From assembly GCF_023016805.1 (NCBI RefSeq), contig NZ_JALKCH010000009.1:62001-126000 (forward strand): DNA of 64,000 nt, written 5' to 3'. Below the pieces are notes generated by a model. The model was not told the DNA's origin. It ran no database searches and worked only from the letters and a program-made list of their open reading frames with translations. Origin of the DNA: Ancylobacter crimeensis. Its GTDB lineage: Bacteria; Pseudomonadota; Alphaproteobacteria; Rhizobiales; Xanthobacteraceae. Made by a program: the position numbers and the translations under genes. Below, piece after piece: positions 35,741 through 59,194 of this stretch (position 1 is the stretch's first letter; each line of letters opens with the position of its first letter).

Positions 35741-35830
35741 GGAGGGGTGCCGGAGTGGTCGATCGGGACGGTCTCGAAAACCGTTGTGCGTGCAAGCGTA
35801 CCGTGGGTTCGAATCCCACCCCCTCCGCCA
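35741..35830 (+). tRNA. tRNA-Ser (anticodon CGA)
   Basis: A class II tRNA of 90 bases including CCA. The acceptor stem is ggagggg/cccctcc. The anticodon stem acggt/accgt encloses ctcgaaa, giving anticodon CGA for codon UCG. A long variable arm (ttgtgcgtgcaagcgta) and the T arm gtggg-ttcgaat-cccac follow. The large-protein cluster starts 98 bases beyond its 3' end. I found no second copy of its 3' end within the window. Confidence 0.95.
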
Positions 35831-35928: not shown

Positions 35929-37683
35929 TCACGAGGGAGCAGGATCCAGCTGATCGAAACGCAAGCCGCCAGATCCTTCACCTTTGCCGATCTGACGGCG
36001 ATAGGCGGTCCACAACCAGGTTCCACCGTCGATCCACCGTGCCATGCGGCGATTGCGGGTCAGGCGCAGGCCTTCGCGCGGAATCTCCTCGTCGAACAGG
36101 AGCAGATCCGCGACCCCAGCCAAAATGTCGCCTTGCGCCGGATGCGAGATCTGGCTTCCGTCAGGCTCCAGGATCGCACCGCGTCGCAGGCGCTGAATCA
36201 TCTTGCCGTCGGCTCCGATCCGTTGGACGGGCAGCAAGGGAATCCAGTTTTCCGGCACGGTGGATGCCAGGCGATAGCGCAGCCCGCCGGTCGGGAGATC
36301 GGATGATGTGTCGGAGAGGTCCCCGGGACGGTGCATCGCCTGCTCCATGGGACTTTCGATGGACCGCTCCATGGCCCAGGCCATGTTGGCCATCTCGTCG
36401 CGCGCAAAGAAGACATCTTCCAGCATGGGCCCGTCGAGCAACCGGCCCGCTGTTGAAGGCAGGAAGAACAGGTTGCCATGCGGCAGCGGCGCAGGCTCCT
36501 CGCCGGGATAGCGGATGTGGTCGAGGCTCCACATCGACCACCCCGGTGCGGCAAGGCCGCTATCGCCGATCGGGCGGATCATCGTTCGCACGCCGAAGCT
36601 GTCTGTGATCACCAGGCTGTCAATGCGCGTCACGGACCCGATCGGCAGAGTGAGAGGCACGACGAACCAGTCATTGCCGAAGCTGCTCGCGTATTCGATC
36701 GCCATCAGTTGGGCGAGGTCGGTCGGTCCGACGGGCATCAGGCCATAGGCGAGCCCGGCTTCTTCCATCTCCCAGTAGCGAGGCGCGGGCGCGCCGCGAA
36801 ACGTCACCGGCGCGGGGACGGCCGTGTGTGTCTTTGCGACGAAACGGCGGTCCGGAAGCGAGCCGAGATTCACTTCGGCATTCAAATCGAAGCTGCACCA
36901 GTCGACCCGACCGTCGTCGATGCCCGATGCGGTGAGATTGATCTCGTCCATCGGATCGGCGGAGATACGGGCGGTCAGGGTCAGCGCATATTCCAGCCGG
37001 TCGGCGACCCATGTGTCCGCCGGATTGGCTGGCTGGGAACAGAAACCGTCATACCAGACGAGCCAGCCTGTCGCCGCCGTGATGACCTTGGCCCGATCAC
37101 CCGGCTCGATGCCCAGGGCGGCATCGGCGACGACCTGCTCGATCCCCGCACGGAAGGCGGCGGCCAGACGCCGCCCATCGGGTACCCGGCCTGCCATGAG
37201 CGCAATAAAGCGACGCGTCGGCTCATCCGATGCCACGCCGGTGGGTAGCTGAAGTGCGAAATGGGCGGTGACGATGTCGCGATAATCCCTGGATGTCGCC
37301 TGCGCGGCCAGCATGCGCAGGAAGTGTTGGCCCGCATCCGCCGAGAACGGCAGGAGGCGCAGGTCATCTGCAGCTTCAGCTCGCATCGGCCGGCGTTCGA
37401 TCAGGGCCTCGAGCGGTTGCGCCAACGGATCGAAGGCTGCCGCGGTAGCCTGCGTGTCGGCCGGCAGCGGGCCCGGCCATTGCCGGGTCAACGTCGCCGT
37501 CGTGGCGTCCATCGTGGCCAGAACCGGCGTGCCGCTGTCCTCGGCCTGGAACTCGCCCATCTGCCACTGCCGCGAGAGCAGCCACAGCGGATCAAGCAGC
37601 CGCGCCTTGAGACTGTTCGTCATCTGCGGATCACGGGCCTGCGGTTCGAGCCGGACCCAGCTTGTGATGGACGGATCGCTCAT
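35929..37683 (-). CDS. conserved protein of unknown function, last gene of giant-protein operon (584 aa)
   Basis: I do not recognise a characterised family. The N-terminus is WVRLEPQARDPQMTNSLKAR, then a Trp-rich block LLDPLWLLSRQWQMGEFQAE. The middle has DWFVVPLTLPIGSVTRIDSL and near the end TRNRRMARWIDGGTWLWTAY. There is no signal peptide or transmembrane segment. ATG 37683 overlaps the stop of the 1495-residue gene as ATGA; the longer open frame upstream does not look coding. Its place in the operon suggests it works with the other three proteins. Confidence 0.75.
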   Translation of the reverse strand: MSDPSITSWVRLEPQARDPQMTNSLKARLLDPLWLLSRQWQMGEFQAEDSGTPVLATMDATTATLTRQWPGPLPADTQATAAAFDPLAQPLEALIERRPMRAEAADDLRLLPFSADAGQHFLRMLAAQATSRDYRDIVTAHFALQLPTGVASDEPTRRFIALMAGRVPDGRRLAAAFRAGIEQVVADAALGIEPGDRAKVITAATGWLVWYDGFCSQPANPADTWVADRLEYALTLTARISADPMDEINLTASGIDDGRVDWCSFDLNAEVNLGSLPDRRFVAKTHTAVPAPVTFRGAPAPRYWEMEEAGLAYGLMPVGPTDLAQLMAIEYASSFGNDWFVVPLTLPIGSVTRIDSLVITDSFGVRTMIRPIGDSGLAAPGWSMWSLDHIRYPGEEPAPLPHGNLFFLPSTAGRLLDGPMLEDVFFARDEMANMAWAMERSIESPMEQAMHRPGDLSDTSSDLPTGGLRYRLASTVPENWIPLLPVQRIGADGKMIQRLRRGAILEPDGSQISHPAQGDILAGVADLLLFDEEIPREGLRLTRNRRMARWIDGGTWLWTAYRRQIGKGEGSGGLRFDQLDPAPS

Positions 37684-40600
37684 CGTGTCAGCGGCCCCAG
37701 ATCTGACGACGCTACGTCGTCTGCGACGTTGAAGGCGAGGTAGGCGGCGGGAAGATAGTGGGCGGCATCCCCAAGCGTGTTCGGATCCACCACCCGCAGC
37801 TTGGCCAGATCCAGCGTCTCGGCCAGCACCCGGTAGAGCGTGCCGACGGTCCAGTCCTGATCGGGCTGCGGCGGCACGGCGAGCAGGATGGCCTGGGGCG
37901 CCATCGCGTCGGGCGGATTGAACTGGAAGGTGAGTGCCGTGGTTTCCTCGATGGAAGGCACGACCTCCGTCCATTCGTCGATCCACAGCCCGCAGAGCGG
38001 AGCAGTTGCGTCGAGAATGCCGTCCGTGGTCTGCAACACCAGCGACAGCGCACCGAAAGCGAGCGGCTCACCAGGGAGCATCGGCAATCCGACCCAGCGC
38101 CGGCCGACGGAGAACGGCAATTGCGCCACGTGCAGGTTCAACCTTTCGCCGGTGTCCAGCGCCTCGGCGCCGCGCAGGCAAGCGCCGAGGCGGGAGAGCG
38201 GCTCGCGCACGCGCGACGCGCGCAACAGCCAGCCCTCCGCCGCCGCCGGCACACCCCGCAACAGCGCCGGAGCGTCGGCCAGCGCCGCGGCGAGTTCAGC
38301 CGCACCGGCCGCATCGCAGGTGAAGCTGGCAAGGCCCGGAAAGCCGCTGCCGAACACGGCGGTCAGGCGCTCGCGCAATTGCCGGGCCCTCGCGCGATCA
38401 TCACTTGCCGCCGGCATCTTTCGCAGATCCGCACCGCGATCGAGACGGGCCTGCACCGCTTTGGCCAGTGCCCGAGCCTGCGCAGCGAGCGCCGCGCGGG
38501 TCGAGCTATCGTCGCCGCTCGCCGAGGCCGGAACGGCGGGGCCGATGCCGAACCCCGCGCATTTCAGGATCAACTCCCGCAAGGCGTCCGAAGAAAGCCC
38601 GTCCTGAGGCTCCGACCCGATCGCGGCCAAGGCCGCCTCTGCCGCGACGATGCGCCGTTCGAGGTCGACGAGATCCGCGCCGGTCGCCGGAGCATGCTGG
38701 GGAGGCGCGATGTCTTCGGGCTCGGCAGCGCGTGCCCCGGAAAGGAGCCGCTGCGCCGTGCACGCCTGTTCCAGAATGTCGAACAGGGTCCGTTCGCCCG
38801 TTGCCAGATCGGCTGGCCGGTCATGATTGAGACCGAGTGTTCCGCCCGCCCCTATCATACGGCGCGCCGCATAAAGCACCCGCTGCTCCAGCTCGCTCGG
38901 GCCGGTCGAGCGCGCGGCGGGATCGGTCGCCACACTGCAGACAACATCCAGCGGGGAAAGGCCGAGATCGCTGAACGGCAGGGTCCGTATCGTGCTCGCG
39001 CCGGTGGCATCGGTCACCGTGATGGAACAGCGGATGTTGCGGGGATCGCCAAGCAGCCGCGATGTCCATGCATTCAGCATCGGGTCTGCGCTGGCCCGCG
39101 CCGAACTGGCAGCCGAGGGCCAGCCGGCCGCCGGCTGGACGGAACCCGACATCAGGACCAGCACGCGATGGGTGAGTGCGGTTCCGCTGCGAGGCATGTG
39201 AGCGACCTCCAGTTCGGGAGGCGCCCCGTCCCCCTGGGCAATGGCTGCCAGACTGCTCGCCAGTCGGGTCGGATTGCCGCGTGCCATCTGATAGGCGGCT
39301 TCAGCAACGAGGCCGTCGCTCAGCCCATCGATCATGTCGGCGAGCTGGTCGAGTTCACGCGCGGCCTTGTCGATATCCGCACCCGCGGCCTGCAGCTTTG
39401 CACGCACCGAGGCGTTCTGATCTCGCCACAGAGCCTGGAGGGCCAACCCGTCAACAACGTTGTTGGCAGCGATGGCCTCCAGCGGCTTGTCGGCGGGCGT
39501 CAGCCGCCCGGCCGTGAGCGGGGCAAGCTCGCGCAATGGTGCGATACAGGCGTCGAGACCCAGCTCGTGCAGGCCACGCTCGACCCGATAGCCGAGAAGC
39601 GCGCCGAGTGGCTGGCCCTGTCGCATGCCGGCCAGCAGTTGCTCGGCGTCGCGAACACGACGTGAACTCAGCCGGATCGCAAAGGGACTGTCGGGACCGG
39701 GAGAACCGTCCGCACCGAGATGAGCGTTCCGCAACAGAGCTGCGGCGCTGGCGTGGGTCAGAGACGGCGCATGGATGAAGCCGCTATCGTCCGGAGCCAT
39801 AAAGACGGGATCGGTCATGCCGGGCGGTGGCTGCGGAACCGGCTGGAGCGCCGGCGCGGGATGAACGTTCTCAATCCAGCCATAAGCACCCACATAGATA
39901 CCCTCGGGCGCAGCGGCGCGCATGGCCCGCAGACGCTGGGTGGCGAAACTCGTGATCCAGGCATCGAGGCGGTTCGCCGCGAGATCCAGCCCGCCCAAAA
40001 GCAGAAGTTGCAATCGCTCCACATCGAGGGTCTGGAGCTGGGCAAGCGCGCCGCGATATTCCCCGAGGCTCGCCAATGCCTCGTTGTCGAAGCTGGTCTG
40101 CGCTTCCAGGAAGGCGCCGATGGTTTGCGGCGCCGTTGCCGACGGGATCATGCCCAGTTGGCGGCGGAAGCTGGGTGTCGGCTCGGCACCGGTCACGAGG
40201 TCGATCAATTCGGCGTCCCGCAACAGCGCACCCAGATCCGCGCCAGGGGCGCTCGCCGCCAGCCGGGCGGCCGCCTGCGCTGTCTCGCGTAGCAGCCCGT
40301 GTCGCAGAACCGTCTGCAGAAGAGTGCCCTGAGGCGTCGTTGCCGCGGGATCCGGGCGCTGGCCGATGACCGCGTCGAGAGTCGGTGCGGCCAGGAGCGC
40401 AGTGATGTAGTTGGGCGTGAGCGGGACATCGGCGGCGATCGGACCATCCTGCACGAGCGGCGCGTTGACCGGCCAGGTGAGTTCGGCATAGGCGACATGA
40501 CCGAGGCGCGCCTGGTCCGGCAGGCCGAGCCGACCGGGCAAGGCCCCCGTGATCTCGTCCTGTGCCTGGATGAATCCGGCAGCCTGCAGATCCTCGCCGA

Positions 40601-42167
40601 GGAATGCGCGCAGGTGCTGGAGATAGTGGCGTCCCAGCAGGGCACGTGTTCGCACCCCCGCGGACACGCCGTCCATCTGCATCATGTCGGCGAGATCGGC
40701 GTCCGGATCCGGGGGCGAGGTACGGGCACCGAGCCGCGGCACCTGCCCCAGCTGCGGCCGCCAGACCCGGTCGCGCAGCTTCACCAGAAGGTCGCGAAGC
40801 TGCAGGTTCCGCGCAAAGGCCGCGGTCTCATCCGCCTTTGCCTGCAACAGATCGAGCGAGGTGACGGGCAACAATCCATAGGGTTGACGCCCTGCGCGCA
40901 GCGGGGCCAGCGGCCCGAACGCACGCACGTGATCGATGAAGTACCGCCGCACCCAATCGACCGTGTCCGGCGTCAGGCCCGTGCCCTCGAACCCGATCAT
41001 ATTGTCGAGGAAATAACCCCAGGTCGTCGGCCACAGCGCGGCGCCGAGATTGCGATTGTCCGCCTCATGACATTCGTCGGCCTGACCGAGATAGCCGAGC
41101 GTGGGAGCGACGCGGCCTGCCGGCAAACCCAATGCGAGACCGAGCTGTCGCGCGTTCGTGTCCTTGCCCAGCATCGACGGATCGGGAGCGATCTCCCGCA
41201 TGAAACTGCGTTCCTGGCCGGGATCGGATGCGGCATAGGCAGTACGGCCGTCGGCGGTGTTGTTGGTGACTGCACCGAGGCGCAGGAATTCCAGACCATC
41301 GGTGTAATGATGTGCGTCGAGAAGGTCGGCCAGCATGACCGAGCTCGCCGCCGCATCCGCCTCGGCCGTGCCGAACACCATGAGGCTGTCGAACCCATCC
41401 GCGCCGATCGTCGCGGGCAAGGCGACGCGGACGCCCATGCCCTTGGCCTCGGCCGTCTCGAAATCCACCATCCAGCGCATGCCCTCATCGACCGGAGCCT
41501 GCTGACCGTCGGCCGGAACCGCTCCCTTCGGATCCGGTCCGACCGCCAAGGGAGACGGGATGGGGCTTCCCTGCGCGGCAAGCACCGGGATGCCTCCGGC
41601 CTGCAGCACAACGATCCATCGCGCGGGCAGCAGACGAGCAGCCGGGGCACTCCTCCAGGCGGAAGTCTGCTCAGATGGCTCGGTCATCACATCCGGGAAG
41701 GCCGGGGGGGCCTCGAATGGGTGATCGGGAGCCATCGGCGCGGACGGCCGGTCGCCCGGATTGGTCGGCCGCAATGCGCGCACGATAAAGGCCGCCCGCG
41801 CCGGCCCGTATTGTTGGGCCAACTGCCGCCACGCGGCTTTGCGCGTCGGCAGATCGTTGCCGGCCCGCCAATCGGCTTCCCAGTAGTGGATGCCCCACTC
41901 CCGCTCGGCGGCCAGCAGCTTCGGCTCGTAGCTGTCGAGATGGATCTTGTCCGGATAAATGCGCACCCGCAGCTCGCGCGACCCGTCAGCCAGGGTGAAG
42001 AACCGCGTCTCGAGCCGGACCGGCAGGAGTGCAAGCGGCCGGTCGGACGCGCAGAGCTTCTGGCTGAGGTCCGGCGATGGAGGAGCATTTGGGGACGACG
42101 AGGCCGCTCCGGGGTCGAAAATCCTCGTTGGCAGGTCCGTGGTGGTGCGGAAGGGCGGGCGGCTCAT
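37680..42167 (-). CDS. giant protein of unknown function (1495 aa)
   Basis: No characterised family is recognised. Near the N-terminus is LALLPVRLETRFFTLADGSR followed by LRVRIYPDKIHLDSYEPKLL, and a conserved-looking block GRQPYGLLPVTSLDLL occurs around residue 430. The rest is a mix of Ala-rich helices and beta segments. No signal peptide and no membrane helices are visible, so a large soluble or assembled protein is likely. ATG 42167 is chosen because it forms an ATGA overlap with the upstream stop; the open frame runs to 42734, but that part is a shadow of the neighbour. Confidence 0.75.
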   Translation of the reverse strand: MSRPPFRTTTDLPTRIFDPGAASSSPNAPPSPDLSQKLCASDRPLALLPVRLETRFFTLADGSRELRVRIYPDKIHLDSYEPKLLAAEREWGIHYWEADWRAGNDLPTRKAAWRQLAQQYGPARAAFIVRALRPTNPGDRPSAPMAPDHPFEAPPAFPDVMTEPSEQTSAWRSAPAARLLPARWIVVLQAGGIPVLAAQGSPIPSPLAVGPDPKGAVPADGQQAPVDEGMRWMVDFETAEAKGMGVRVALPATIGADGFDSLMVFGTAEADAAASSVMLADLLDAHHYTDGLEFLRLGAVTNNTADGRTAYAASDPGQERSFMREIAPDPSMLGKDTNARQLGLALGLPAGRVAPTLGYLGQADECHEADNRNLGAALWPTTWGYFLDNMIGFEGTGLTPDTVDWVRRYFIDHVRAFGPLAPLRAGRQPYGLLPVTSLDLLQAKADETAAFARNLQLRDLLVKLRDRVWRPQLGQVPRLGARTSPPDPDADLADMMQMDGVSAGVRTRALLGRHYLQHLRAFLGEDLQAAGFIQAQDEITGALPGRLGLPDQARLGHVAYAELTWPVNAPLVQDGPIAADVPLTPNYITALLAAPTLDAVIGQRPDPAATTPQGTLLQTVLRHGLLRETAQAAARLAASAPGADLGALLRDAELIDLVTGAEPTPSFRRQLGMIPSATAPQTIGAFLEAQTSFDNEALASLGEYRGALAQLQTLDVERLQLLLLGGLDLAANRLDAWITSFATQRLRAMRAAAPEGIYVGAYGWIENVHPAPALQPVPQPPPGMTDPVFMAPDDSGFIHAPSLTHASAAALLRNAHLGADGSPGPDSPFAIRLSSRRVRDAEQLLAGMRQGQPLGALLGYRVERGLHELGLDACIAPLRELAPLTAGRLTPADKPLEAIAANNVVDGLALQALWRDQNASVRAKLQAAGADIDKAARELDQLADMIDGLSDGLVAEAAYQMARGNPTRLASSLAAIAQGDGAPPELEVAHMPRSGTALTHRVLVLMSGSVQPAAGWPSAASSARASADPMLNAWTSRLLGDPRNIRCSITVTDATGASTIRTLPFSDLGLSPLDVVCSVATDPAARSTGPSELEQRVLYAARRMIGAGGTLGLNHDRPADLATGERTLFDILEQACTAQRLLSGARAAEPEDIAPPQHAPATGADLVDLERRIVAAEAALAAIGSEPQDGLSSDALRELILKCAGFGIGPAVPASASGDDSSTRAALAAQARALAKAVQARLDRGADLRKMPAASDDRARARQLRERLTAVFGSGFPGLASFTCDAAGAAELAAALADAPALLRGVPAAAEGWLLRASRVREPLSRLGACLRGAEALDTGERLNLHVAQLPFSVGRRWVGLPMLPGEPLAFGALSLVLQTTDGILDATAPLCGLWIDEWTEVVPSIEETTALTFQFNPPDAMAPQAILLAVPPQPDQDWTVGTLYRVLAETLDLAKLRVVDPNTLGDAAHYLPAAYLAFNVADDVASSDLGPLTR

Positions 42168-45001
42168 AGCGGTGGCCTCGCCGGTGGCGTCAGGCGCGAG
42201 CCATGGATGGCGACGCGCGCGGGAAGCCGGCGGGTGATTCCGGCCATATGTGCCCCGTTCCGGCCCCAGCTCAGGCCGCGCAACGCGGTTCCGTCCGGTG
42301 CATTCCCAAGAGCCGAGATTCGTCCCGCAGGAGCCCCGGCATCGAGACCGAACCGTGGCTCGGTGGGATGCTCCTGGATGATGACGTAGCAACCCTCGGA
42401 GCCGTCGGCGCCGGTAACCGCCGCCGCCGGCAGATTGAAGCCGAAAAAGGCCACGTCCGGCAGCATCGAGCCGGTGAAGATCGGATAGATTTCGTCGGCG
42501 GGCGCTTCGCTGATCTCGCGGCCACGCGCCGTGCGTATCGCGCGGGCCGCGTAAATGACGGCGTTGGGATATCGCTGCAGGAGCGCGCTTCTGACCAGCA
42601 TGACGAACCGGTCCGCATCGGTGGCCGGCACGGCTGGCGAGTGGCCCAAAGCATTGTCGCCCCATGTGATGAGCGGAGCGATGTCGGCGTGGCCCGGACC
42701 GGCGCCGCGCACGTCCCAGAATTGATCGAAGCACGTCGCGCGTTGGTCCGTAGGAAAGCCGCGCCAGAGCAGTTCGCCGTTCATCTCCCCGTTCAACCCG
42801 ACCATGTAGGCCTCGACGAAGGGCCGGTTGGTCTTGAGGCCGAGCACCGTATCCGGCGGAACGGCATCGAGCCCCGGGAGCAACAGGTCCTGCGACAAGT
42901 CGCGCAGCGGCTCGTACATGGGCTGGGGAAAGCGCGGCGCAGCCATCACAATGTCGAGTCCCACATGCATGCTCGCCGGAGTGTCAGCAGGCGTGGTGGC
43001 GGCGGGGCCGGAGGCGATCACGGCCTTCGCCAGAGCCGTGAGGGTGACACGCGGGTCAAGGTGACCAAGCACCGCCGCCCGGACGCCGTCGACGTCCAAT
43101 GGCGCCGGAGGCCCGACCATGATCGCCATCCGGCCCGGGTTCAGGCGCGTCAGATGGGCGACGGCGGCCTGACGAAACGCCTTGGCACTCTCGCTGTCGG
43201 CGAATGGTGGCTGGTGGGGAAGCCGCGGCGGCGGAGCCACCACCCGCACCGGTTGCCCCTCCGCGACAACGGCGAACAATGGCCTTGGCGCTGTCGCCGC
43301 GACGAGGTCGGCGGTCACCTCGGCATAGCCGCGGATGCCGGGCGATCCGCCGATCCGGGCGAGAACCGCCCGGATGGTCGCAGGCCCCGTCGCGGGCGGC
43401 GGCGGCAGAACGACCAGCCCGTGGTTAAGGATGCTGATCCAGTTGCCCCCGGCCACGCGGGCGACCGCCTCCGAAGCCACCCGACGGGTCATCGGCCCGC
43501 GCCCCCGGCCAATCCGTCGCATGGCGACGCTCACGGCCGCAAAGGGCGCCGCCGATCGCGTCATCTGGGCGATGAGGGTACGCGGCTGCGGATCGGTGCC
43601 GAGAGGGGCGCGGATCCGTCCGAACACCGGTGCTGCAAAGCGCAACACGGCGTCCATCTGCAAGGGCTTCAGATGGCGGGCGTGGACGTTCGACCCGACC
43701 GCAAGGCTGAGCTGCAGCAGCCGCAGGCGCTGGTTCGCCGCGCGCAGGTCGGCCGCCTGCTGCCAGGCTGACGCCATGAGGGCTTCCTGATGCTCCTGCA
43801 CCACGCGCACCCCGAGCGCCGCGATACTACGCCAGCGTGGGTCGAGATTCAGCGTATCGAACCAGACGCTCGCACTCGGTGTCGCGATCGTGCGGGCCGC
43901 GTACCAGCGGCCATAGAGCGGCGGTGCCAGCAACGGATCGGCAGCCGGATCGGCGGCCTCCAGCCGGCCGGGCGCATTGACGATCGTCGCGAGCGCCGTC
44001 TGGAAGGGTGGGGCAATATCGGGTGGCAAGGGAGGCGGGGCGTCTGGAGCATCCACCGGCTGCAGGGCCCCCGGTACGTCCACCAGGACTGACATCGGAA
44101 AACCGGCGGGCAGGGCAAATCCGGGATGGGCGATCTCCACGGCCCGCATGCCAAGCCCATCAGGCGGCAACCGAGGGATCAGGCGCCTGGCCAGGGCTTC
44201 GAAGTCTCCTTCCGCGCCAGTACGGAAACTCCATGAGTGGTAAACCGGCAGCACGACGTCCGTCGGCGGTTGAGGAGTGAGCGACCACGCCGGGGCAAGA
44301 CTTCCATTCGCGGCCGTCAGATCGGAGCTGGTCACGGGCAGGCCGAGGCCGGCCTTGCGACCGACCTCGAAGGTGGGAACGACACAGGCGAAATAGTCCG
44401 TGTTGGCCTGCAACCGGCGCGAGCAGAGCAGTCGGGAGAGCGAGAGTTCCGAACCGCCATTCAGGGCCCCGCTGACCGCCTCTCGCGTGCTCGCGCCCGT
44501 CGCTGCTTGAGCATGCGCCCAGGCCCAGGCATCCGCGAGATCCGGCAGTTCATCCGCGGGAGAAGCCGTTCCGCCGATGTGCAATTCGGGCAACGGCCCG
44601 GTGCCCGGAGGTGTCAGGCTCACGCCGTCGCGGCGCATCACTACGACGAGACAGAGCCACGGCCGCAACCGCGAGCGATCGCCTGGCTTCAGGGGCGTGA
44701 ACAGCCAGGGAAAATCCGGACGGTCGAATTCGACGCTGGCGAAGTGGTTGGGTTCGAAATCCGTGCTGTAGGGTCGCGGCTCCATCCGGATCACCTGATG
44801 GACGTCGATGCCCGTTACATCAGCCGGCCCTCTCAGTTGCGAAACCACTGTCAAAGGCGGTTCGGCGTTGAGGGTGAGGGTGAATTCCACACTCGCCATA
44901 CCGGCCTGAGCGGCACCGAGATTATCTGCAGTGGAAAGGCCGGCTGCTACGCCCTGTCGTACCCAAGGAAGGAAGCTGAGGTTGGCTTGCGTGTCCGGCA
45001 C
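42164..45001 (-). CDS. large protein of unknown function (945 aa)
   Basis: No characterised family is recognised. Features seen are a helical stretch around residues 400-440 (RVVQEHQEALMASAWQQAAD then LRAANQRLRLLQ) and a block near residue 800, FVMLVRSALLQRYPNAVIYA. Pro/Ala-rich linkers separate the blocks. There is no signal peptide. Translation starts at GTG 45001 with an unusually strong GAGGAGAGGAGG site upstream, 15 bases after the stop of the 1183-residue gene. It overlaps the 1495-residue gene by 4 bases. Confidence 0.75.
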   Translation of the reverse strand: MPDTQANLSFLPWVRQGVAAGLSTADNLGAAQAGMASVEFTLTLNAEPPLTVVSQLRGPADVTGIDVHQVIRMEPRPYSTDFEPNHFASVEFDRPDFPWLFTPLKPGDRSRLRPWLCLVVVMRRDGVSLTPPGTGPLPELHIGGTASPADELPDLADAWAWAHAQAATGASTREAVSGALNGGSELSLSRLLCSRRLQANTDYFACVVPTFEVGRKAGLGLPVTSSDLTAANGSLAPAWSLTPQPPTDVVLPVYHSWSFRTGAEGDFEALARRLIPRLPPDGLGMRAVEIAHPGFALPAGFPMSVLVDVPGALQPVDAPDAPPPLPPDIAPPFQTALATIVNAPGRLEAADPAADPLLAPPLYGRWYAARTIATPSASVWFDTLNLDPRWRSIAALGVRVVQEHQEALMASAWQQAADLRAANQRLRLLQLSLAVGSNVHARHLKPLQMDAVLRFAAPVFGRIRAPLGTDPQPRTLIAQMTRSAAPFAAVSVAMRRIGRGRGPMTRRVASEAVARVAGGNWISILNHGLVVLPPPPATGPATIRAVLARIGGSPGIRGYAEVTADLVAATAPRPLFAVVAEGQPVRVVAPPPRLPHQPPFADSESAKAFRQAAVAHLTRLNPGRMAIMVGPPAPLDVDGVRAAVLGHLDPRVTLTALAKAVIASGPAATTPADTPASMHVGLDIVMAAPRFPQPMYEPLRDLSQDLLLPGLDAVPPDTVLGLKTNRPFVEAYMVGLNGEMNGELLWRGFPTDQRATCFDQFWDVRGAGPGHADIAPLITWGDNALGHSPAVPATDADRFVMLVRSALLQRYPNAVIYAARAIRTARGREISEAPADEIYPIFTGSMLPDVAFFGFNLPAAAVTGADGSEGCYVIIQEHPTEPRFGLDAGAPAGRISALGNAPDGTALRGLSWGRNGAHMAGITRRLPARVAIHGSRLTPPARPPL

Positions 45002-45016
45002 GTCGCCCTCCTCTCC

Positions 45017-48000
45017 TCAGGCCGCCAGCTCGTAGTCGGGCGTCAGCTGCCACATCGCGCGCCCGACATTGAGTTTCGCGACCTCGCCGCGCAATTCGGT
45101 CCACGTCCGATCCGGGGCGACGGGATGCGCCTCGCCGTCGGCAAGAGGAACCACCGTCCAGTGCACCAACAGCACCGTTACGGCCGGCCCAGCGCCTTCA
45201 TTAGCGAAGCGTGCCCGTCCGGTACGGCGCGGTGCGGCTCGACCGGCCGCACCGCTCATGGCCAGGCTCGCCAGCCGATCCGGACTCAGCGCATACGGAA
45301 GACGGTCGGGCAGGGGCGGGGCGGCCTCATCGTCAAATGTGACGGTGTCGTAGGTCAGCGGTCCGCCGACGATCTCGTTGGCATCGAAGGTGACAGCGTC
45401 ACCGAATACAACGCCCGCCTGCATCATCTCGTAGGAAGGCGCGGCGAGCTTCTCGTCATCGCTCATGGCAAAGAACTGCGCCGGCGAGAACTGGTCCATG
45501 ACAGGTTGCAGATCCTGAGGATCGCCATTGATGGCCCCGGCGAGCTGGAAGTTCCGTGCGCCTGCGACCGGCACCCCGCCGAACAGATCGATGTCGCGTC
45601 CGGCATTCAGCGGGACCGTCAGCTGGCGCATGACCAGCCGGCCGCCCGGATCAAGCGTCAGTCCGTCGGCGGACGCCTTCCGTAGCGCCACGCCATGAGC
45701 CCCCTGACCGCCTTCGGTGGCCCAGCTTTCGGCCGCGACCAACACCCGCTTGAGCTCGGAGATGACGTCGATGGCCGCGGAAAGCAATGGCAGATCGCCG
45801 GCGACGAGCGTCTGGTCGATGCGAATGGTGAAGTCGCACCAGAAGATCTCGAACGAGGCCTTGCCGCTCATCAGCAGCGGCAGCGGACCCTCCAGCGTGC
45901 CGTCGACCGAGAGCTTGAAGAGGTTGGTAGAGCCATGCTTCAGCTGCACCGAGGCGTGGAAGTCGGCGATGAAGTGGATGGGAACCAGCTGGATCAGCAC
46001 GTCGAAACCCACATCGCCTTCGATGCTGAAGCCATACGCCGCCGCATAAAGCGAGGCACACGCGCCGAACTGCACCGTATTGGCGGTGACCGCGAAATAG
46101 GCCTCGCAGGTCAGCCGCGGATTGTCTCCCGAACTGAGGGCGATGGTGATCCTCGGCAGGTCCGGCAGTCCTTCCGGCGGCGCGAAACGCTGGTTGAGGC
46201 CACCGATCGCCATCACGAAACTGGACCCGGGGCCGGCTTTCAGCCGAGCGCGCAACGCCATGCTGCCGGTGAGGGGGAACCGGTGGGCGAGACGGGAATC
46301 CACCAGCACGGCGTCAATGGAGACCGTGCCCTCGTCGAAGTCGAGCACCCCTACAGCATCGAGATTCAGTCGCACCAGATCATTGTCGGCCTCGGGCAGC
46401 AGGCAGCTGATGCGACCGAGCGCCAGAAGGCGGGTGCGCGCACCCACCTCCAGGACGAGCGCGAGACTGGCCGTCACGAGGGTCGGCGTCGGCCAGCCAA
46501 TCTGCACCAGCAGCCCAAGAAGATAGTGGCCGCGCTGGAACGGGAAGGCTGCCGACAGCGCCGCCACCACGGCGGGGCCATTCGCCGCCGGATCACGAGG
46601 GAACAGCAGCGCCGCCAGCGTGTCGGCCGCCAGACCCTGACGGATCGCTGCCTCGTCGAAGGTACGGTGCACACCAAGCATGCCCCCCACGCCCGTGAGC
46701 TTGAAACCCATCCCAAGCTGGACCGGAGTGAACCCCTCGACGGTAACGAAGACGAGGAGCGAGAATCCGGGGGCGCCATCGGGTGCGGATGTGGTGATGA
46801 GGCCGAACGCCTTCAGCGTCAGCCGGCCCTGCAGGGAGAGCCGCAGGTCGCCGAAATAAAGCGATTGCGCCTCGTCGTGGAACAGGAAGCCGCCGCCGGT
46901 CACGAGACCCGCCGCATCGATGTCGAGCCCTACGCCGGCGGGCGCACGCAGGCCCGGCCTTTCGATGTGCAGCACGCCCAGATTCTTCGAGCGAGCGGGA
47001 TCCTTGAGCGACCACAGCACATCGACAGCGACGCCGGGGCCGGCGATAGCTGCGGTCACCGGGCCGAGCTTCACGCTCAGATTGACGCCGAGGCCAAAGG
47101 TGAGGCCCGAACCCGTTGCGGTGTCGGCGCTGCGGAAGTCGCGGGTGATCGACTGGATCAGCAGCGGACCGATGGACCTGCCCACCGGCACCACGCCCGA
47201 CGGCGGCGTTCCCTGCACACTGACGCCGATGTCGAGACCACCATCGCTCCAGAAGGTGAGCGCGAGGTCACACTCGACCTGCGCGCCACCCTGCGGCAGG
47301 ACTTCGCCGAGGAAACCGTCGCTCTCGCCCGAGAGCACGAGACGGGCATGTTCCGCCTTGGCGGTGAAGCCGATGCGCTGCTGCGTCGGCGAAAGGGCAA
47401 AGTCGAACTGAACCCGCAGATCGCCCACCTCGATGCGACTACCGCCGGATTCGCCGAGCTGAAATGCCGGCTCGGCGCCACGGGCTCTCGCGGCCCCGAT
47501 ATGGCCCGTCGCACCTGCACCTGCAGCGGCAGGGTCCAGCAGTTGGAGGCCGTCGGGCCCCACCACGAACACCGGCAGGTCGCCGGTCGTCGCAGCCTCC
47601 AGGTTCCAGCCGCCACGCGTCTCATTCCAGGCGAAGGCACCGGCGGCGCCGAAGATAAGGCCCGCGATCCCGCCCTCATGCTCCGTTGCCGATGCCACGA
47701 TGCTGAAGCCGATCCGGCCGATGCCGTCCGCTCCGGGGAGCATCAGGATCAGTCGAGGAAGGTTGCGGCGCAGGAACACGGCGGGATCGTCGAGCGGCGC
47801 AGGCTGCACGTCGTCGGGACCCTCGACGTCGGCGTGATCCTGGGTGTCGATATCTTCGGGTGGCGTCGCACCGGGCGATGGCGGATCGAGTGCGCGCAGA
47901 TCCTGCCGAACCCGGAGACCGATCACGTCCGCCACGTGAACGAGGAGAGGAAACAAAAGCGCTGCGGAACGGTGGGCATCGGCGGCCTGCGCCATGCCGT

Positions 48001-48568
48001 TCGGGAAATAGACCTCGCCCAACGTCGCCCACGGGTGTGACATGAGCCCGTCCAGACGCTCGAAATGGAACGTGTCGTCGGCCCAGGGCGTGCGTGTGAC
48101 CTGTCCGCCCGCCAACTCGAGCGCGGATGGTGCGGTGATTTCCAGAACCTCGATGAGCGTCAGCAGTGCTGCGATACGATGCAGGCGCGGGGCTCGCCGC
48201 CGCAGATAGACACTCACGAGGCGGTTGGCGATTTCCAGCCCGAGACTCTCGGCCTGTGCTGCCAGCGTCGGATCGGTGATCGCACGCTCTGCCGCCTGAA
48301 AGCCCGCAATGGCCTGCTCGGCGACGGCAAGTGCCTTTACCGCGCCGTCCCACGTATCGAGGGTAGCGGGATCAAGGCCCTGTAGCTGTGTGATCGCGCT
48401 CGCCACCTGAGCAAGCGCTGCCTGAAGACCCCCATCCGTGGCGAGCGCGGGCATATGTCCGAGGGCGCGCAACATCCTGGCGTAGGATGCCGTGTCACCG
48501 ACCGCGGCGAGAGGCGCCAGAAACTCTACCAACTCGTCGCGGAGCACGCTTGCCAGCGTCCCAGCCAT
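45017..48568 (-). CDS. large beta-rich protein resembling DUF6603 proteins (1183 aa)
   Basis: First gene of the minus-strand operon. About 170 N-terminal residues are helical. The rest is rich in beta strands with many Gly turns, and the block GFKLTGVGGMLGVHRTFDEA near residue 620 resembles DUF6603-type proteins. That match is from memory of the family pattern and should be tested. LSLQGRLTLKAFGLITT and YGFSIEGDVGFDVLIQLVPI are similar long amphipathic strands. No signal peptide is seen. ATG 48568 is the start; an upstream ATG at 48634 lies in AT-rich DNA and is less likely. Confidence 0.75.
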   Translation of the reverse strand: MAGTLASVLRDELVEFLAPLAAVGDTASYARMLRALGHMPALATDGGLQAALAQVASAITQLQGLDPATLDTWDGAVKALAVAEQAIAGFQAAERAITDPTLAAQAESLGLEIANRLVSVYLRRRAPRLHRIAALLTLIEVLEITAPSALELAGGQVTRTPWADDTFHFERLDGLMSHPWATLGEVYFPNGMAQAADAHRSAALLFPLLVHVADVIGLRVRQDLRALDPPSPGATPPEDIDTQDHADVEGPDDVQPAPLDDPAVFLRRNLPRLILMLPGADGIGRIGFSIVASATEHEGGIAGLIFGAAGAFAWNETRGGWNLEAATTGDLPVFVVGPDGLQLLDPAAAGAGATGHIGAARARGAEPAFQLGESGGSRIEVGDLRVQFDFALSPTQQRIGFTAKAEHARLVLSGESDGFLGEVLPQGGAQVECDLALTFWSDGGLDIGVSVQGTPPSGVVPVGRSIGPLLIQSITRDFRSADTATGSGLTFGLGVNLSVKLGPVTAAIAGPGVAVDVLWSLKDPARSKNLGVLHIERPGLRAPAGVGLDIDAAGLVTGGGFLFHDEAQSLYFGDLRLSLQGRLTLKAFGLITTSAPDGAPGFSLLVFVTVEGFTPVQLGMGFKLTGVGGMLGVHRTFDEAAIRQGLAADTLAALLFPRDPAANGPAVVAALSAAFPFQRGHYLLGLLVQIGWPTPTLVTASLALVLEVGARTRLLALGRISCLLPEADNDLVRLNLDAVGVLDFDEGTVSIDAVLVDSRLAHRFPLTGSMALRARLKAGPGSSFVMAIGGLNQRFAPPEGLPDLPRITIALSSGDNPRLTCEAYFAVTANTVQFGACASLYAAAYGFSIEGDVGFDVLIQLVPIHFIADFHASVQLKHGSTNLFKLSVDGTLEGPLPLLMSGKASFEIFWCDFTIRIDQTLVAGDLPLLSAAIDVISELKRVLVAAESWATEGGQGAHGVALRKASADGLTLDPGGRLVMRQLTVPLNAGRDIDLFGGVPVAGARNFQLAGAINGDPQDLQPVMDQFSPAQFFAMSDDEKLAAPSYEMMQAGVVFGDAVTFDANEIVGGPLTYDTVTFDDEAAPPLPDRLPYALSPDRLASLAMSGAAGRAAPRRTGRARFANEGAGPAVTVLLVHWTVVPLADGEAHPVAPDRTWTELRGEVAKLNVGRAMWQLTPDYELAA

Positions 48569-48918
48569 GACGGATCCCCAGCGAAATGGGAGAATATATG
48601 CATCGATCCAATGTAATTTAGACGAATAATTCAATATATCATATTAGTATATAGGCGACACATCATATATATTTCAGTTATAGATATTATTTTTATTTCA
48701 TCTTTTCAAGATATACGACAATCACAAATGCCATCATATTTCAATATTTTGTTTCGAAGTATATTTTCTGATGGCAGAGAAGACGGCACGGATTCCATTA
48801 ATAAGCTTACGATAGGTAAATTGCAAATATTGTCTCCGTGGATTTTTTACCACATACTGATCCGATAAAGAAGTCGCCATATCGTTTTCTGGGGCAGTGC
48901 CAATATAGGGCAGGTTCC
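48569..48918. promoter_or_regulatory. AT-rich divergent promoter region of the giant-protein cluster
   Basis: Bases 48601-48840 are about 30% GC by count (71 of 240), and 48661-48720 only 20%, while the genes on both sides are well above 60%. The interval lies between the divergent starts at 48568 and 48919 and holds no convincing gene. Runs such as tatattattttttatttc-like tracts with many TpA steps are the kind bound by xenogeneic silencers (MucR/Ros or H-NS-like), which is an inference here. Confidence 0.65.
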
Positions 48919-51324
48919 ATGACCCAAATCGCGATTGTCGTAAGGCCCCTGAAAAATCGTCTCGATTCGACTTACTGGGACGACATGACCAGTGCCCGGC
49001 TGCCGTTGCGGCGGATCACGAGTTCGGCCGGTTATGCCAACCGCTTCCCTGGGATCAGCGAGGTTTTCTCCATCGTCGTTCACGAGACGGATGGTTGGCC
49101 CTCGCGCAACAAGGCGGAATCCTGGGTCACCGCCTATTCGGGTCCTAGCACGGTGGGACCGCAGGTCGCGATCTGGGGGGACGGGACGATAACGCCGCTC
49201 GTCAATTATCCCGACATGACCGGCCATGCGACGTTCGTGAACCAGTGGGCGCTGGGCGTGGAGACCGGTCACCGCGACGACCGGACCGGATACACCCTTC
49301 CCAATCCTCCCCGCTCCTTCGCCTGGGAACAGCTCTCGACCGACGCCAACGATCTGACGGGACGCAAATATTTCGTCCTCCGACAGGTCGCCGACATACC
49401 CAGCGAGATCATCGCGGCCTGGTTCCCGACCGCAACCTACAACGGTCCAAAGCGTGATGCCGCGGTGCCCGCCGGAATGTTGTTCAACGAATTGCAATAC
49501 CGATCCTGGGCGCTGCTGGCCCGCTACATGGCGGAAGCCTTCTTGGTGCCGCGCAATATCCCGCTGCTGCCCCATGTCCAGCGCTCCGCCACGATAAACG
49601 ATGCGGCCACCTTCCGCCGCATCGTGATGGCCGACGAAAACGTCGATGCCATCAAGGACACGCTGGTCCGCGAACTTCTGACCATTCCGGGCGGGGCGCA
49701 CACTTTCTTGGCCACCGATTTCACGGCCGGCCAAGAGGCCAGCTTCGATGCGAATTATCTGCTCGCCGCCGTTCCCGCCAATTCAGACGTGCCGGGATGG
49801 GGGTTCACGCACAACGCGATGATGATGGGCACCCACCCGGGCGGCGCCAACACGCCGAAGCTGCAGGAGCGCTGCGTCGCCCTCAACAAGGCATGGCTGT
49901 GGTTCTTCAAGGTCTATCGCGGATTTCACGGTCACGGCTTCAGCGGCAACATCCATCAGGGATTCACTCGTTTTGATACCGCGAGCAGTTCCTTCACGAG
50001 CACGACACTCCATGACCACGATTGCCCCGGCCCGCTGTTCGACTGGCACCGCTTTGCGCGGGAGATGTGGGACTGGTGGTGGTGGCCGTTCGACTTCGAC
50101 ACCGGGCATGCCCACACCAATGCTCCCATCCGCGATTATCGTGCTGCGAGCGGAACGACGCCACTGCGCGAATATTTCTTTCACGAGACCGCGGCCAATG
50201 TGAACGCCCGGATCGCAACAGCCGGCGGCATTCACGGCGCCGCCTCCTCGCCAACGACCTACCAGCTCGACGCCGACTCGCCCGTCTATGCGCTCGCCAA
50301 CGGCGAGATCGTCGCAGCACGGTTTCCCCGCACACCCGCCAATGCCGTGGATATGGGTTTCGTGCTGGTACGCCACGACGTCTACCACACGCCCGATGTC
50401 AGTGGCCTCGCCAATCTGCTCGCTCCCCTGCTCGGGACCACGCCCCCGGCGGCAACGCCCCAGCCGGGTGGCCGCATCGACTACGACGTCGAGCCGACCA
50501 CGGTCTATTCGCTGGTCATGCACCTGCTGCGTCCAGCCGACCTGACCTTCACGGATATCTCCGACGCCAATCCCGAATGGCTGAACCGGCTGATCATCCG
50601 CCGCAAGGAGTGCGACCTCGCTTTTCCCCCGGCGACCGGCGCCATGAATGCCACTCTGGCGGGAATGCCCGCCGCCGAATTCAGCCGGCCTCCCGGCGGC
50701 CTTGCGCGCCCTACCCTCACCGAGTCCTATCAGCTCGACCAGATCTCGCTGAGCGCTTTCCTGAATGCACTGGAGCAGGGCGACCTGGCGATTTCGCAAA
50801 GTCGCCAAGCCTATGAGGCGGCAAGCCAGATGCCGATCCAGATGATCCTCGGCGACTATCTCGGCAAGGCGGGCGTGATCCGCCGCGACGGTGCCGGAAT
50901 ATTGACGCATGGCATGCGGGTCGAGGTGTTCTCCCCCGCGCTCGCTTCTGTCGACTTCCAGGCGATCACCGATCAGACCGGTTGGAACGTTGTCGGCTCG
51001 CCGGCGCGGCCAGCCCTGCTCTATCAGAGCGAATGGGCACGCACGCCGGATGCAACAACCTCGGCCACACTTCAGCAGATCGGTGTCGACCCGGCGCTGG
51101 TGCCCTGGTGGTCGACCGTCGCGCAGTCTCAAGCCTGGGACGTCTCCATGCCTGCAGCCGACCGTCTGCCCTTGAACGGGCAAGTCTATCACTATTCTCC
51201 AGCAACCTTCATGGCCTGGATCAACGATCTTACCTGGGCCAGCGAATGGCCGAAATACAAGGTGATGGACGCATCGGGCAATCCGGTCGCCCGACCGGCC
51301 GCGCCGCGCAGCCGGTGGGGTTAG
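48919..51324 (+). CDS. 801-residue protein with amidase-like and M23-like domains
   Basis: The first ~380 residues match the N-acetylmuramoyl-L-alanine amidase (amidase_2) pattern: VVHETDGWP (His55), VAIWGDGTITPLVNYPDMTG with His103, WALGVETGH (Glu115), and the final zinc block LHDHDCPGPLFDWHRF near residues 364-379. About 200 residues are inserted before that last block. Around residues 435-540, GGIHGAA, SPVYALANGEIVAARFP, GFVLVRHD and VYSLVMHLL resemble M23 (LytM) strands, but the HLHFE motif is missing. No signal peptide is visible. GTG 48838 upstream is possible; ATG 48919 is preferred. It is divergent from the giant-protein operon. Confidence 0.8.
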   Translation: MTQIAIVVRPLKNRLDSTYWDDMTSARLPLRRITSSAGYANRFPGISEVFSIVVHETDGWPSRNKAESWVTAYSGPSTVGPQVAIWGDGTITPLVNYPDMTGHATFVNQWALGVETGHRDDRTGYTLPNPPRSFAWEQLSTDANDLTGRKYFVLRQVADIPSEIIAAWFPTATYNGPKRDAAVPAGMLFNELQYRSWALLARYMAEAFLVPRNIPLLPHVQRSATINDAATFRRIVMADENVDAIKDTLVRELLTIPGGAHTFLATDFTAGQEASFDANYLLAAVPANSDVPGWGFTHNAMMMGTHPGGANTPKLQERCVALNKAWLWFFKVYRGFHGHGFSGNIHQGFTRFDTASSSFTSTTLHDHDCPGPLFDWHRFAREMWDWWWWPFDFDTGHAHTNAPIRDYRAASGTTPLREYFFHETAANVNARIATAGGIHGAASSPTTYQLDADSPVYALANGEIVAARFPRTPANAVDMGFVLVRHDVYHTPDVSGLANLLAPLLGTTPPAATPQPGGRIDYDVEPTTVYSLVMHLLRPADLTFTDISDANPEWLNRLIIRRKECDLAFPPATGAMNATLAGMPAAEFSRPPGGLARPTLTESYQLDQISLSAFLNALEQGDLAISQSRQAYEAASQMPIQMILGDYLGKAGVIRRDGAGILTHGMRVEVFSPALASVDFQAITDQTGWNVVGSPARPALLYQSEWARTPDATTSATLQQIGVDPALVPWWSTVAQSQAWDVSMPAADRLPLNGQVYHYSPATFMAWINDLTWASEWPKYKVMDASGNPVARPAAPRSRWG

Positions 51325-51542
51325 AACGCAGGCCCAGCGCGACGAGAATGAGCCGCGAGCGACAACGAGCGGAGCGAAACGGATCGCCTTGGCAGTTACT
51401 TCACCTCAGCGCATGTCGGGAAAGGGTGCTGCGGCCCGCTCGTCAGCCAACATTGCGTCAGCGTGAGATTAAAGTCTTCCCCGCCCCACGGCTGCCATTG
51501 ATCCCGAACGGCTCGCACGCAACGCAGCAGAACCCCAGCCTT

Positions 51543-52280
51543 TCACAACGCCGAGCCCCCGTTTACGCCGAGGATCTGTCCGGTAACGTAGCTCGCATCG
51601 CCGGACAGGAGATAAACGATGGCGGCGGCGATCTCCGATGGCTCTGCCTCGCGTCGGAGGGGAATGGCGTCGAGCCAGCCCTGCCGGATCTGGGCCGGCA
51701 CAGCTTCCACCATAGGTGTCGAGGTGGCACCGGGCGCCACCGCGTTGCACCTGATGTTGTGACGTGCATGCTCCACGGCAACCGTACGCGTCAACCCGAC
51801 CAGCCCGGCCTTCGCCGAAGCATAATTGGCTTGTCCGAACGCACCCCAGCGCGATTCCGACGACAGATTCACGATCGAACCACCGGTCGCCGTCATGGCC
51901 GGAATGACGTTCTGGCAACCAAGCCACGCGCTCTTGAGATTGACATCGATCACGAGGTCCCAATCCTCGTCGGTCATCTTCAAGAGAGAGCGATCGCGTG
52001 TAACTCCCGCATTATTGACGAGACCGTCGATCCGTCCGAAGCGACCAAGCACTGTTCCAACGCCGGCCATCCATTCGTCGCGGCTGGAAACGTCGAGCGT
52101 CACGCCAATCGCCCGGCCACCGGCCGCCGACAGCTCGTCGGCAAGCGCTTCGATGCCCACGCGGTTGCGGTCGGCAAGAGCGACGATGGCACCCTCTTCA
52201 TTCAGCCGTCGGGCGGTCGCTTCACCGATGCCCTGCGCAGCTCCGGTGACGATGAATACCCGATCCGTCAGGCCACGCAT
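51543..52280 (-). CDS. SDR family oxidoreductase (FabG-like)
   Basis: A 245-residue NAD(P)-dependent dehydrogenase with the cofactor motif TGAAQGIG near residue 13, NNAG, the catalytic Ser in NLSSESRW and Tyr-Lys in YASAKAGL, and the end GQILGVNGGSAL. It probably reduces or oxidises a 3-hydroxyacyl-CoA intermediate. ATG 52280 overlaps the MaoC stop (TGATG), with GGAGG upstream; GTG 52283 is an alternative. It is the last gene of the catabolic operon. The 218 bases between it and the amidase gene show nothing. Confidence 0.92.
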   Translation of the reverse strand: MRGLTDRVFIVTGAAQGIGEATARRLNEEGAIVALADRNRVGIEALADELSAAGGRAIGVTLDVSSRDEWMAGVGTVLGRFGRIDGLVNNAGVTRDRSLLKMTDEDWDLVIDVNLKSAWLGCQNVIPAMTATGGSIVNLSSESRWGAFGQANYASAKAGLVGLTRTVAVEHARHNIRCNAVAPGATSTPMVEAVPAQIRQGWLDAIPLRREAEPSEIAAAIVYLLSGDASYVTGQILGVNGGSAL

Positions 52281-52723
52281 CACGGTTTTCCTCCGATCAG
52301 ATATTTATTGTAGCCGGACTGCACTATTTTACCGTTCTGATTGAGTATCGCGACCTCCACCTCAACAATACCACGAGACGAATCCTTGCGGCTGGCAGTC
52401 TTGGCGGTGATTCTGTAGGTCTGGCAGAGACGATCCCCCACAAGGACAGGCAACAGCATCCGGCGCTGCGTTTCGACGAAGGCCAGGATCTTCCAGCTCA
52501 TCATCTCCTTGCATGCCAATCCCTCGCCGATAGCGTGAACAAGCAGGCCATGCGCGATGCGTCCGGGATAATGGGTGTTGGCGCGCACCCACTGCTCGTC
52601 CATGTGAAGCGGGTTGAAGTCTCCACTCAGTCCAGCAAACCCGACAATGTCGGCCTCTGTGATGGTGCGGCCGGCCGAGACATATTCCGCCCCGACCACG
52701 ATATCGTCGAACGTCACTTGCAT
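52280..52723 (-). CDS. MaoC family dehydratase (hydratase)
   Basis: A 147-residue hot-dog fold protein with the (R)-hydratase-type motif DFNPLHMDEQWVR, preceded by ITEADIVGFAGLSG and followed by RIAHGLLVHAIGEGL. It likely adds water to, or removes it from, a 2-enoyl-CoA thioester. It lies one base after the DUF35 gene; DUF35 proteins are often partners of MaoC-like hydratases or thiolase-like proteins. Confidence 0.9.
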   Translation of the reverse strand: MQVTFDDIVVGAEYVSAGRTITEADIVGFAGLSGDFNPLHMDEQWVRANTHYPGRIAHGLLVHAIGEGLACKEMMSWKILAFVETQRRMLLPVLVGDRLCQTYRITAKTASRKDSSRGIVEVEVAILNQNGKIVQSGYNKYLIGGKP

Positions 52724-52724
52724 T

Positions 52725-57575: not shown

Positions 57576-57585
57576 GGGAAACCTC

Positions 57586-59163: not shown

Positions 59164-59194
59164 GGGAACTCTCTTCAAAACGGCGTGTCGGCGG

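What the first reader, a model, noticed from the sequence alone, without database searches (positions are those of the whole stretch)
35929..51324. Five-gene cluster of giant proteins of unknown function with a two-domain cell-wall hydrolase-like partner
Four translationally coupled minus-strand genes encode 1183-, 945-, 1495- and 584-residue proteins with no recognisable enzyme motif, signal peptide or membrane helix. Divergent from them is a protein with amidase zinc motifs and M23-like strands. Three of the gene pairs overlap by ATGA or are 15 bases apart, implying fixed stoichiometry, as in a large assembly. The first gene resembles DUF6603-type proteins. No tail, sheath, AAA+ or secretion gene is present, so it does not match known injection systems. 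The set could build a structure on or in the cell that needs peptidoglycan opening, or act against other cells. I have no direct evidence for either.
Basis: partly seen in the sequence, partly recalled or inferred. Interest (0 to 1): 0.85.

Follow-up and report, generated by a model that had tools for sequence, protein, structure and literature searches.

The report
Four-gene platform with swappable enzymes
Four very large proteins of unknown function are encoded as one unit in many bacteria and some archaea, usually beside one interchangeable gene that is mostly an enzyme, which suggests an undescribed protein machine that carries different enzymes.

Summary
The cluster is real and conserved, but its core is four genes, not five. 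A (DUF6603, 1183 aa), B (945), C (1495) and D (584) stand in the same order on one strand in 63 of 86 related loci; 21 of the other 23 are cut by the end of the fetched DNA. Hosts span several bacterial phyla and haloarchaea. B, C and D match no Pfam, NCBIfam, PHROGs or PADLOC model and no solved structure by profile. The four co-vary tightly (Mantel r 0.86-0.96); almost none has a signal-like start.

The main new finding is a slot beside A. In 55 of 86 loci a same-strand gene ends within 210 bp of A. Where identified it is mostly an enzyme: PhoD-like most often, otherwise subtilase, M64, M14, tyrosinase, PLD and others. In the window's clade of eight it is PhoD (5), M64, a beta-lactamase-like protein, or the divergent amidase-like E. 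E has no relatives in what was searched.

Best reading: a multiprotein platform with an exchangeable enzyme, probably acting outside the producing cell. The mechanism is inferred.

The parts
45017..48568 (-). Gene A, 1183 aa: helical N-terminal part (about 1-225), then 35-40 mostly long amphipathic beta strands (287-922)
   Evidence: Pfam DUF6603 E 2.8e-116; AlphaFold2 model pLDDT 77.9; relatives in 81 of 87 loci
45455..47182 (-). DUF6603 domain of A (residues 463-1038)
42164..45001 (-). Gene B, 945 aa, no known family; AlphaFold2 model without a match at E up to 0.001 in PDB or the viral library
   Evidence: relatives in 87 of 87 loci, but 80 of these were chosen by B
37680..42167 (-). Gene C, 1495 aa, no known family
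   Evidence: relatives in 77 of 87 loci
35929..37683 (-). Gene D, 584 aa, no known family; conserved N-terminal motif DPLWLLARQWQ.GEF.GED
   Evidence: relatives in 71 of 87 loci (six of these, L003-L008, were chosen by D)
48569..48918 (.). Intergenic stretch between A and E, 35% G+C, the most AT-rich 350-bp stretch of the 66% G+C window; probable divergent control region
   Evidence: no sigma-70-type site found
48919..51324 (+). Gene E, 801 aa (828 aa from GTG 48838), amidase-like; candidate occupant of the enzyme slot, turned round
   Evidence: Amidase_2 below cut-off; no relatives in plasmids, phages, 288 other genomes of the class or the loci
49069..49308 (+). Amidase_2-like stretch of E
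   Evidence: E 0.017; E 0.0013 as a fragment
35741..35830 (+). tRNA-Ser (CGA) beside D; possible island boundary
   Evidence: flank comparison

Best explanation
A, B, C and D are made together as subunits of one large complex (a platform). The platform carries one enzyme encoded next to A, normally just upstream in the same operon, and that enzyme has been replaced repeatedly in evolution. A is the likeliest contact for the enzyme. Proteins without export signals but with enzymes of secreted type beside them, and adhesion-type domains inserted in some, suggest that the complex acts outside the producing cell, on other cells or polymers, after lysis or export by an unknown route. In this genome the enzyme may be E, an amidase-like protein that would act on peptidoglycan. 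Shown: the four-gene unit, co-variation, different enzymes beside close relatives of the same platform, near-absence of signal-like starts in A-D. Inferred: physical complex, cargo loading, place of action, release, E as cargo.
For: Order A-B-C-D on one strand in 63 of 86 loci, on mixed strands in none; 21 of the 23 others are cut by the end of the fetched DNA, L005 has the same order with B and C each split, L068 holds fragments of A, B, D. A-B overlap by exactly 4 bp in 34 of 80 pairs. Mantel r 0.855-0.957 among A-D in 59 sets, window included. Of 13 plasmid records with B, 13 also have A and D. In Nitrospira 23 of 29 genomes have both DUF6603 and D, 4 neither, 1 each alone (Fisher p 0.001). 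Slot proteins over Pfam cut-offs: PhoD (E up to 0.01 in 30 of 32 scanned), S8, M64, M14, tyrosinase, PLD, Het-C, DUF2515. 54 of 77 tree rows could be labelled by slot content: 14 labels, 3 of them unidentified proteins, 16 changes (13 is the least possible with 14 labels). Links of enzyme to A: alpha/beta-hydrolase fused to A in L059; PhoD distances follow A best (r 0.80) and D least (0.65) in 23 loci; in seven Nitrospira loci a second A stands before the slot gene. Inserts: of 13 long B, C or D proteins picked for length, FG-GAP in 3 and LTD, PA14, Big_6, F5/8 type C in 1 each; H_lectin in a gene just after D in L031, S74 below cut-off in L018. Signal-like starts in 2 of 79 A, 0 of 80 B, 0 of 73 C, 0 of 64 D.
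Against: No experiment or predicted complex shows that the proteins bind each other or the enzyme; linkage and common descent alone raise the co-variation. No shared docking domain was found among enzyme classes by profile comparison, apart from an 82-column match between the S8 group and L079. Some slots hold proteins with no recognised family (L052/L058, L056, L057, L060). Of 70 upstream genes 7 have a signal-like start by the same rule. Of 86 loci, 9 have an opposite-strand gene and 6 a more distant same-strand one upstream of A (two of the six do have an adjoining ORF that the gene caller missed). Hydrophobic 19-residue stretches occur in 14 of 79 A, 4 of 80 B and 2 of 73 C, so membrane contact is not excluded. 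None of 43 D proteins scanned has any Pfam insert. Catalase and tyrosinase are not obvious weapons. Only 218 bp separate E from the next gene, without room for an immunity gene there. E is on the opposite strand and has no known relatives, so its link to A-D rests on position alone.
Confidence: 0.5

Rival explanations
1. An extracellular or cell-surface scaffold that holds degradative enzymes for nutrition or matrix remodelling, not a weapon and not an injector.
For: PhoD-like phosphatases dominate the slot; secreted-type enzymes such as subtilase, tyrosinase and M14; adhesion-type insert domains in a few members; present in 24 of 29 Nitrospira genomes.
Against: Almost no signal-like starts in A-D; no cohesin, dockerin or S-layer module in the window proteins.
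Confidence: 0.22
2. An intracellular defence system: A-D sense infection and the variable enzyme is the effector.
For: Effector exchange is typical of modular defence systems (established knowledge); PLD, protease and hydrolase effectors fit; patchy distribution outside Nitrospira; NB-ARC, AbiEi/AbiEii and CHAT genes near some copies.
Against: No PADLOC match for the window proteins; no sensor or NTPase domain found in them; extracellular-type inserts in some relatives; catalase, tyrosinase, M64 and an amidase are poor intracellular effectors; present in 24 of 29 Nitrospira genomes.
Confidence: 0.12
3. A highly diverged member of a known injection machine (contractile injection system, type VI system or Tc toxin).
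For: Few signal-like starts, enzyme beside the platform, an S74 tail-spike chaperone match below cut-off in one downstream gene.
Against: No Pfam or PHROGs match for B, C, D and none to solved structures by profile; B model has no PDB or viral match at E up to 0.001; no sheath, tube or ATPase gene recurs among the neighbours sampled; no relative of B in viral contigs or of A in phages.
Confidence: 0.07
4. About E only: E and A-D have nothing to do with each other; E is a stray endolysin-like gene that landed beside the operon on the same island.
For: E is divergent, without known relatives, and found in 1 of 87 loci; the right flank has no substantial match in three relatives.
Against: E fills the position where 55 of 86 loci carry the slot gene, and no other gene stands beside A here.
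Confidence: 0.45

Closest known systems
DUF6603 (Pfam PF20248)
   Same: A is a clear member (E 2.8e-116)
   Different: The family has no known function; no Pfam model matches B, C or D of the window
Type II DUF6603 clusters (seen here in 8 Pseudomonadota genomes)
   Same: DUF6603 protein followed by a gene whose N-half is related to B (hhalign 96.3%, E 1.5e-9)
   Different: DUF6603 open frames of about 1,560 to 3,520 aa; B apparently split in two (second half by eye only); a different large third protein; no D in these genomes, no C or D in the stretches read
Extracellular contractile injection systems
   Same: Large multi-protein operon, few signal-like starts, exchangeable enzyme beside it
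   Different: No sheath, tube, baseplate or AAA+ gene was seen; no PHROGs match
Polymorphic toxin systems
   Same: One conserved carrier with many exchangeable, mostly enzymatic parts
   Different: The carrier is four separate proteins, the enzyme a separate gene; no immunity gene recognised
Outer-membrane beta-barrels and ApoB-100 beta belt
   Same: A's meander of amphipathic strands matches these locally (13 PDB hits at E up to 0.001, all outer-membrane barrel proteins; ApoB at E 0.003)
   Different: TM-scores 0.03-0.29, so not the same fold; A has no signal-like start and occurs in hosts without an outer membrane

Membership tests
DUF6603 (PF20248) | Profile match over the curated cut-off | tested here: met
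   389.5 bits against a cut-off of 27
Contractile injection system (eCIS, type VI) | Sheath, inner tube, baseplate, AAA+ ATPase genes | tested here: not met
   No such gene among the five window proteins nor seen among the neighbours of the loci that were scanned; neighbours were scanned by sample, not all
Tc toxin complex | TcA/TcB/TcC domains (SpvB, RHS, neuraminidase-like, TcB-binding) | tested here: not met
   Pfam hmmscan of A-E
Anti-phage defence system | Match to a PADLOC-DB model | tested here: not met
   No match up to E 1 for A-E
Anti-phage defence system | Protection against phage | not testable with these tools
   needs a plaque assay
Phage or phage-derived particle | Relatives in phages or viral contigs | tested here: not met
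   B: none in viral contigs; A and E: none in phages; C and D not searched there
Polymorphic toxin system | Conserved carrier with exchangeable enzymatic part | tested here: met
   met by gene order only, that A-D carry the enzyme is not shown
Polymorphic toxin system | Adjacent immunity gene | tested here: inconclusive
   218 bp between E and the next gene; not examined systematically elsewhere
N-acetylmuramoyl-L-alanine amidase (Amidase_2), for E | Profile match over the curated cut-off | tested here: not met
   19.5 bits at best against a cut-off of 26
Peptidase M23, for E | Profile match | tested here: not met
   No match for whole E or its parts

The most novel reading that the evidence does not exclude
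A-D form a previously undescribed extracellular nanomachine, shared by bacteria and archaea, in which the DUF6603 protein is a giant amphipathic beta structure that binds one exchangeable enzyme and places it on or through the envelope of other cells, without a contractile tail.
Probability: 0.25. Interest if true: 0.95.

Novelty: categorically new. Interest (0 to 1): 0.8.

Why it matters
A four-protein system of about 4,200 residues in all, found in several bacterial phyla and in haloarchaea and in 24 of 29 Nitrospira genomes searched, has no assigned function. The changing enzyme beside it gives a direct handle: one can ask whether different enzymes are carried by the same platform. If so, it would be a new way for prokaryotes to carry and deliver enzymes.

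Tried and rejected
Relatives among solved structures: none for B, C or D at E below 0.09 nor for E below 0.3; A's N-terminal part matched mainly designed helical bundles and coiled coils, best E 0.00086. NCBIfam, PHROGs, PADLOC: nothing up to E 1. D in 43 relatives against Pfam: 0 families. Shared docking domain among enzyme classes: nothing significant except the S8 group against L079. Type II third gene against C or D: not significant; type II small gene against the C-half of B: similar by eye only. Known-system readings (contractile, Tc, defence, phage) rejected as memberships. Papers: seven searches of the open-access library, search listings only, no paper opened. None holds DUF6603 or PF20248; no listed title or abstract start describes the cluster (10 of 35 listed, 8 of 9). 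Subscription papers are not covered.

Limits: only the best 80 of 160 related stretches were kept. That set was gathered with B, so loci without B cannot appear in it. The gene caller was my own script and missed the upstream ORFs of L038 and L040. Only one or a few members of each enzyme class except PhoD were scanned against Pfam; the rest follow by blastp clusters. The tree is a quick LG+G4 tree with long branches flagged; slot labels were set by hand and no shuffle control was run on them. The signal test is a simple hydrophobicity rule with one positive control. E was not searched in genome or viral contigs.
Full report
What is there. On the minus strand, A (45017-48568), B (42164-45001), C (37680-42167) and D (35929-37683) follow each other with gaps of +15, -4 and -4 bp. 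E (48919-51324, +) is divergent across 350 bp of 35% G+C, the most AT-rich such stretch of the 66% G+C window. A tRNA-Ser gene lies at 35741-35830 beside D. The left flank up to about 35129 matches the same-genus genome G077 at 78%, while the right flank 51340-57611 has only short weak matches in G077, G035 and G143. This fits an island beside the tRNA, though I identified no integrase, and one search gave only weak repeats.

Families. A carries DUF6603 (E 2.8e-116). B, C and D match nothing in Pfam, NCBIfam, PHROGs or PADLOC up to E 1, nor any PDB sequence by profile at E below 0.09. E matches Amidase_2 below the cut-off.

Distribution. tblastn of plasmids found B in 13, D in 15 and A in 15 records, from Streptomyces, Nocardia, haloarchaea, Gemmatirosa, Rhizobium, Paraburkholderia and (A only) Embleya; all 13 with B also have A and D. 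The two A-only records are the Embleya ones, which also hit the type II third gene. Of the two D-only records, Streptomyces anthocyanicus has D without A-C among its annotated neighbours (that gene table is incomplete); the other is a fragment covering 19% of D. A scan of genome contigs with a B alignment found 160 relatives, the best 80 kept: Pseudomonadota, Nitrospirota, Actinomycetota, Acidobacteriota, Chloroflexota, Bacillota, Planctomycetota, Gemmatimonadota, Goldiibacteriota and haloarchaea, by record titles (several are metagenome bins). Viral contigs gave no relative of B, phages none of A or E. In the window's order B was found in 1 of 199 genomes, its own, and D in 1 of 398 of the phylum, its own. 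In Nitrospira DUF6603 was found in 24 of 29 and D in 24 of 29, both in 23; several DUF6603 matches there are partial, some at contig ends.

Synteny and constraint. A-B-C-D in that order on one strand in 63 of 86 loci (L003-L088). Of the other 23, 21 are cut by contig or locus ends, L005 has the same order with B and C each in two frames, and L068 has only fragments of A, B and D. C and D are fused in L015. dN/dS is 0.08-0.30 in 20 gene comparisons of five close pairs; Mantel r among A-D is 0.855-0.957 in 59 sets, 0 of 999 permutations as high. Linkage and common descent contribute to this.

The slot. Of 86 loci, 55 have a same-strand gene ending within 210 bp of A, 6 a more distant one, 9 an opposite-strand one, 9 are too short, 6 lack A, and in 1 (L059) the neighbour is fused to A. 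Two of the 'distant' ones, L038 and L040, do have an adjoining ORF that my caller missed. Identities: Pfam PhoD at E up to 0.01 in 30 of 32 scanned of a 35-member cluster, 7 of the 32 with PG_binding_1, with the stretches GDQIYADD, FDDHEVTDDWN and SGDVH in the consensus (that these are active-site motifs is recalled). Others over their cut-offs: subtilase (L045), M64 (L030, L042, L038), tyrosinase (L025), DUF2515 (L019), M14 (L076), PLD (L037), Het-C (L031). Below cut-off: beta-lactamase-like (L016), trypsin-like (L079). Unidentified: L052/L058, L056, L057, L060. DUF2515 and Het-C are not known enzymes. Enzymes can also follow D: subtilase in Nocardia (L115) and catalase in L041, each overlapping D by 4 bp.

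Exchange. On a quick tree of 77 B rows, window_B lies in a group of eight with SH-aLRT 100. Slot contents there: PhoD in L009, L010, L011, L012, L014; beta-lactamase-like in L016; M64 in L038; amidase-like E, turned round, in the window. L012 and L016 are two copies on one contig of Rhizobacter sp. OV335 with different slot proteins. The 54 labelled rows of 77 need 16 changes for 14 labels, three of them unidentified proteins. Thirteen is the least that 14 labels can need, so the argument rests on the number of unrelated classes and on close relatives that differ, not on excess changes.

Structure. A: pLDDT 77.9, pTM 0.60; after a helical N-terminal part, strands of strongly alternating hydrophobicity (2.98 against a shuffled mean of 1.28, sd 0.16, for 35 strands; alternation is also expected of ordinary beta sheets). 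Thirteen PDB matches at E up to 0.001, all outer-membrane barrel proteins, and ApoB-100 at E 0.003, but with TM-scores under 0.3. B: pLDDT 83.3, pTM 0.70, no PDB or viral match at E up to 0.001. C and D were not modelled.

A second architecture. The 8 other genomes with DUF6603 (of 398 in the phylum), including the same-genus G077, lack D, and the 19-kb stretches read show no C or D. They have a DUF6603 open frame of about 1,560 to 3,520 aa, then a gene related to the N-half of B: B profile hits in 5 of 8, E 1e-9 to 3e-4, the other three joined by similarity to these, profile comparison 96.3%. A small gene follows that resembles the C-half of B by eye only, then a large gene unrelated to C or D by profile. 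So DUF6603 and a B-like partner recur together in two settings.

How it might work. The four proteins are fixed partners; the enzyme is not. Signal-like starts were found in 2 of 79 A and in no B, C or D, against 7 of 70 upstream genes. Yet enzymes of secreted type fill the slot, and of 13 long B, C or D proteins picked for length, FG-GAP was found in 3 and PA14, F5/8 type C, Ig or lamin-tail domains in 1 each. This points to action outside the cell after lysis or export by an unknown route. A is the favoured contact of the enzyme because of adjacency, one fusion (L059) and the gradient of co-variation. These last steps are inference.

Noticed in passing
L098-L105, L108-L110: Second ('type II') DUF6603 architecture with a B-like partner that seems split and a different large third protein; also in a genome of the window's own genus.
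   Followed up: partly
L039, L040, L042, L045, L046, L051, L065: Nitrospira copies have a second DUF6603 gene before the slot gene and an extra gene of about 270-310 aa (weak coiled-coil-like matches in L042) between B and C.
   Followed up: partly
L059:1869-10001: DUF6603 protein fused to an alpha/beta-hydrolase (2710 aa).
   Followed up: partly
L018:9287-10264; L031:16318-17685: Genes just after D carry an S74 tail-spike chaperone match (below cut-off) and an H-type lectin domain.
   Followed up: no
L061, L062, L063, L006: Streptomyces copies have a gene after D that overlaps it by 4 bp; a WD40 repeat protein in L061 (Pfam) and L006 (annotated).
   Followed up: no
L068: Degraded copy in Streptomyces nymphaeiformis with only fragments of A, B and D.
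   Followed up: no
window 51543-64000: Beside the cluster lie genes that look by eye like an ABC transporter with acyl-CoA carboxylase, acyl-CoA synthetase and biotin carboxylase; the part tested (51340-57611) has no substantial match in three relatives.
   Followed up: no
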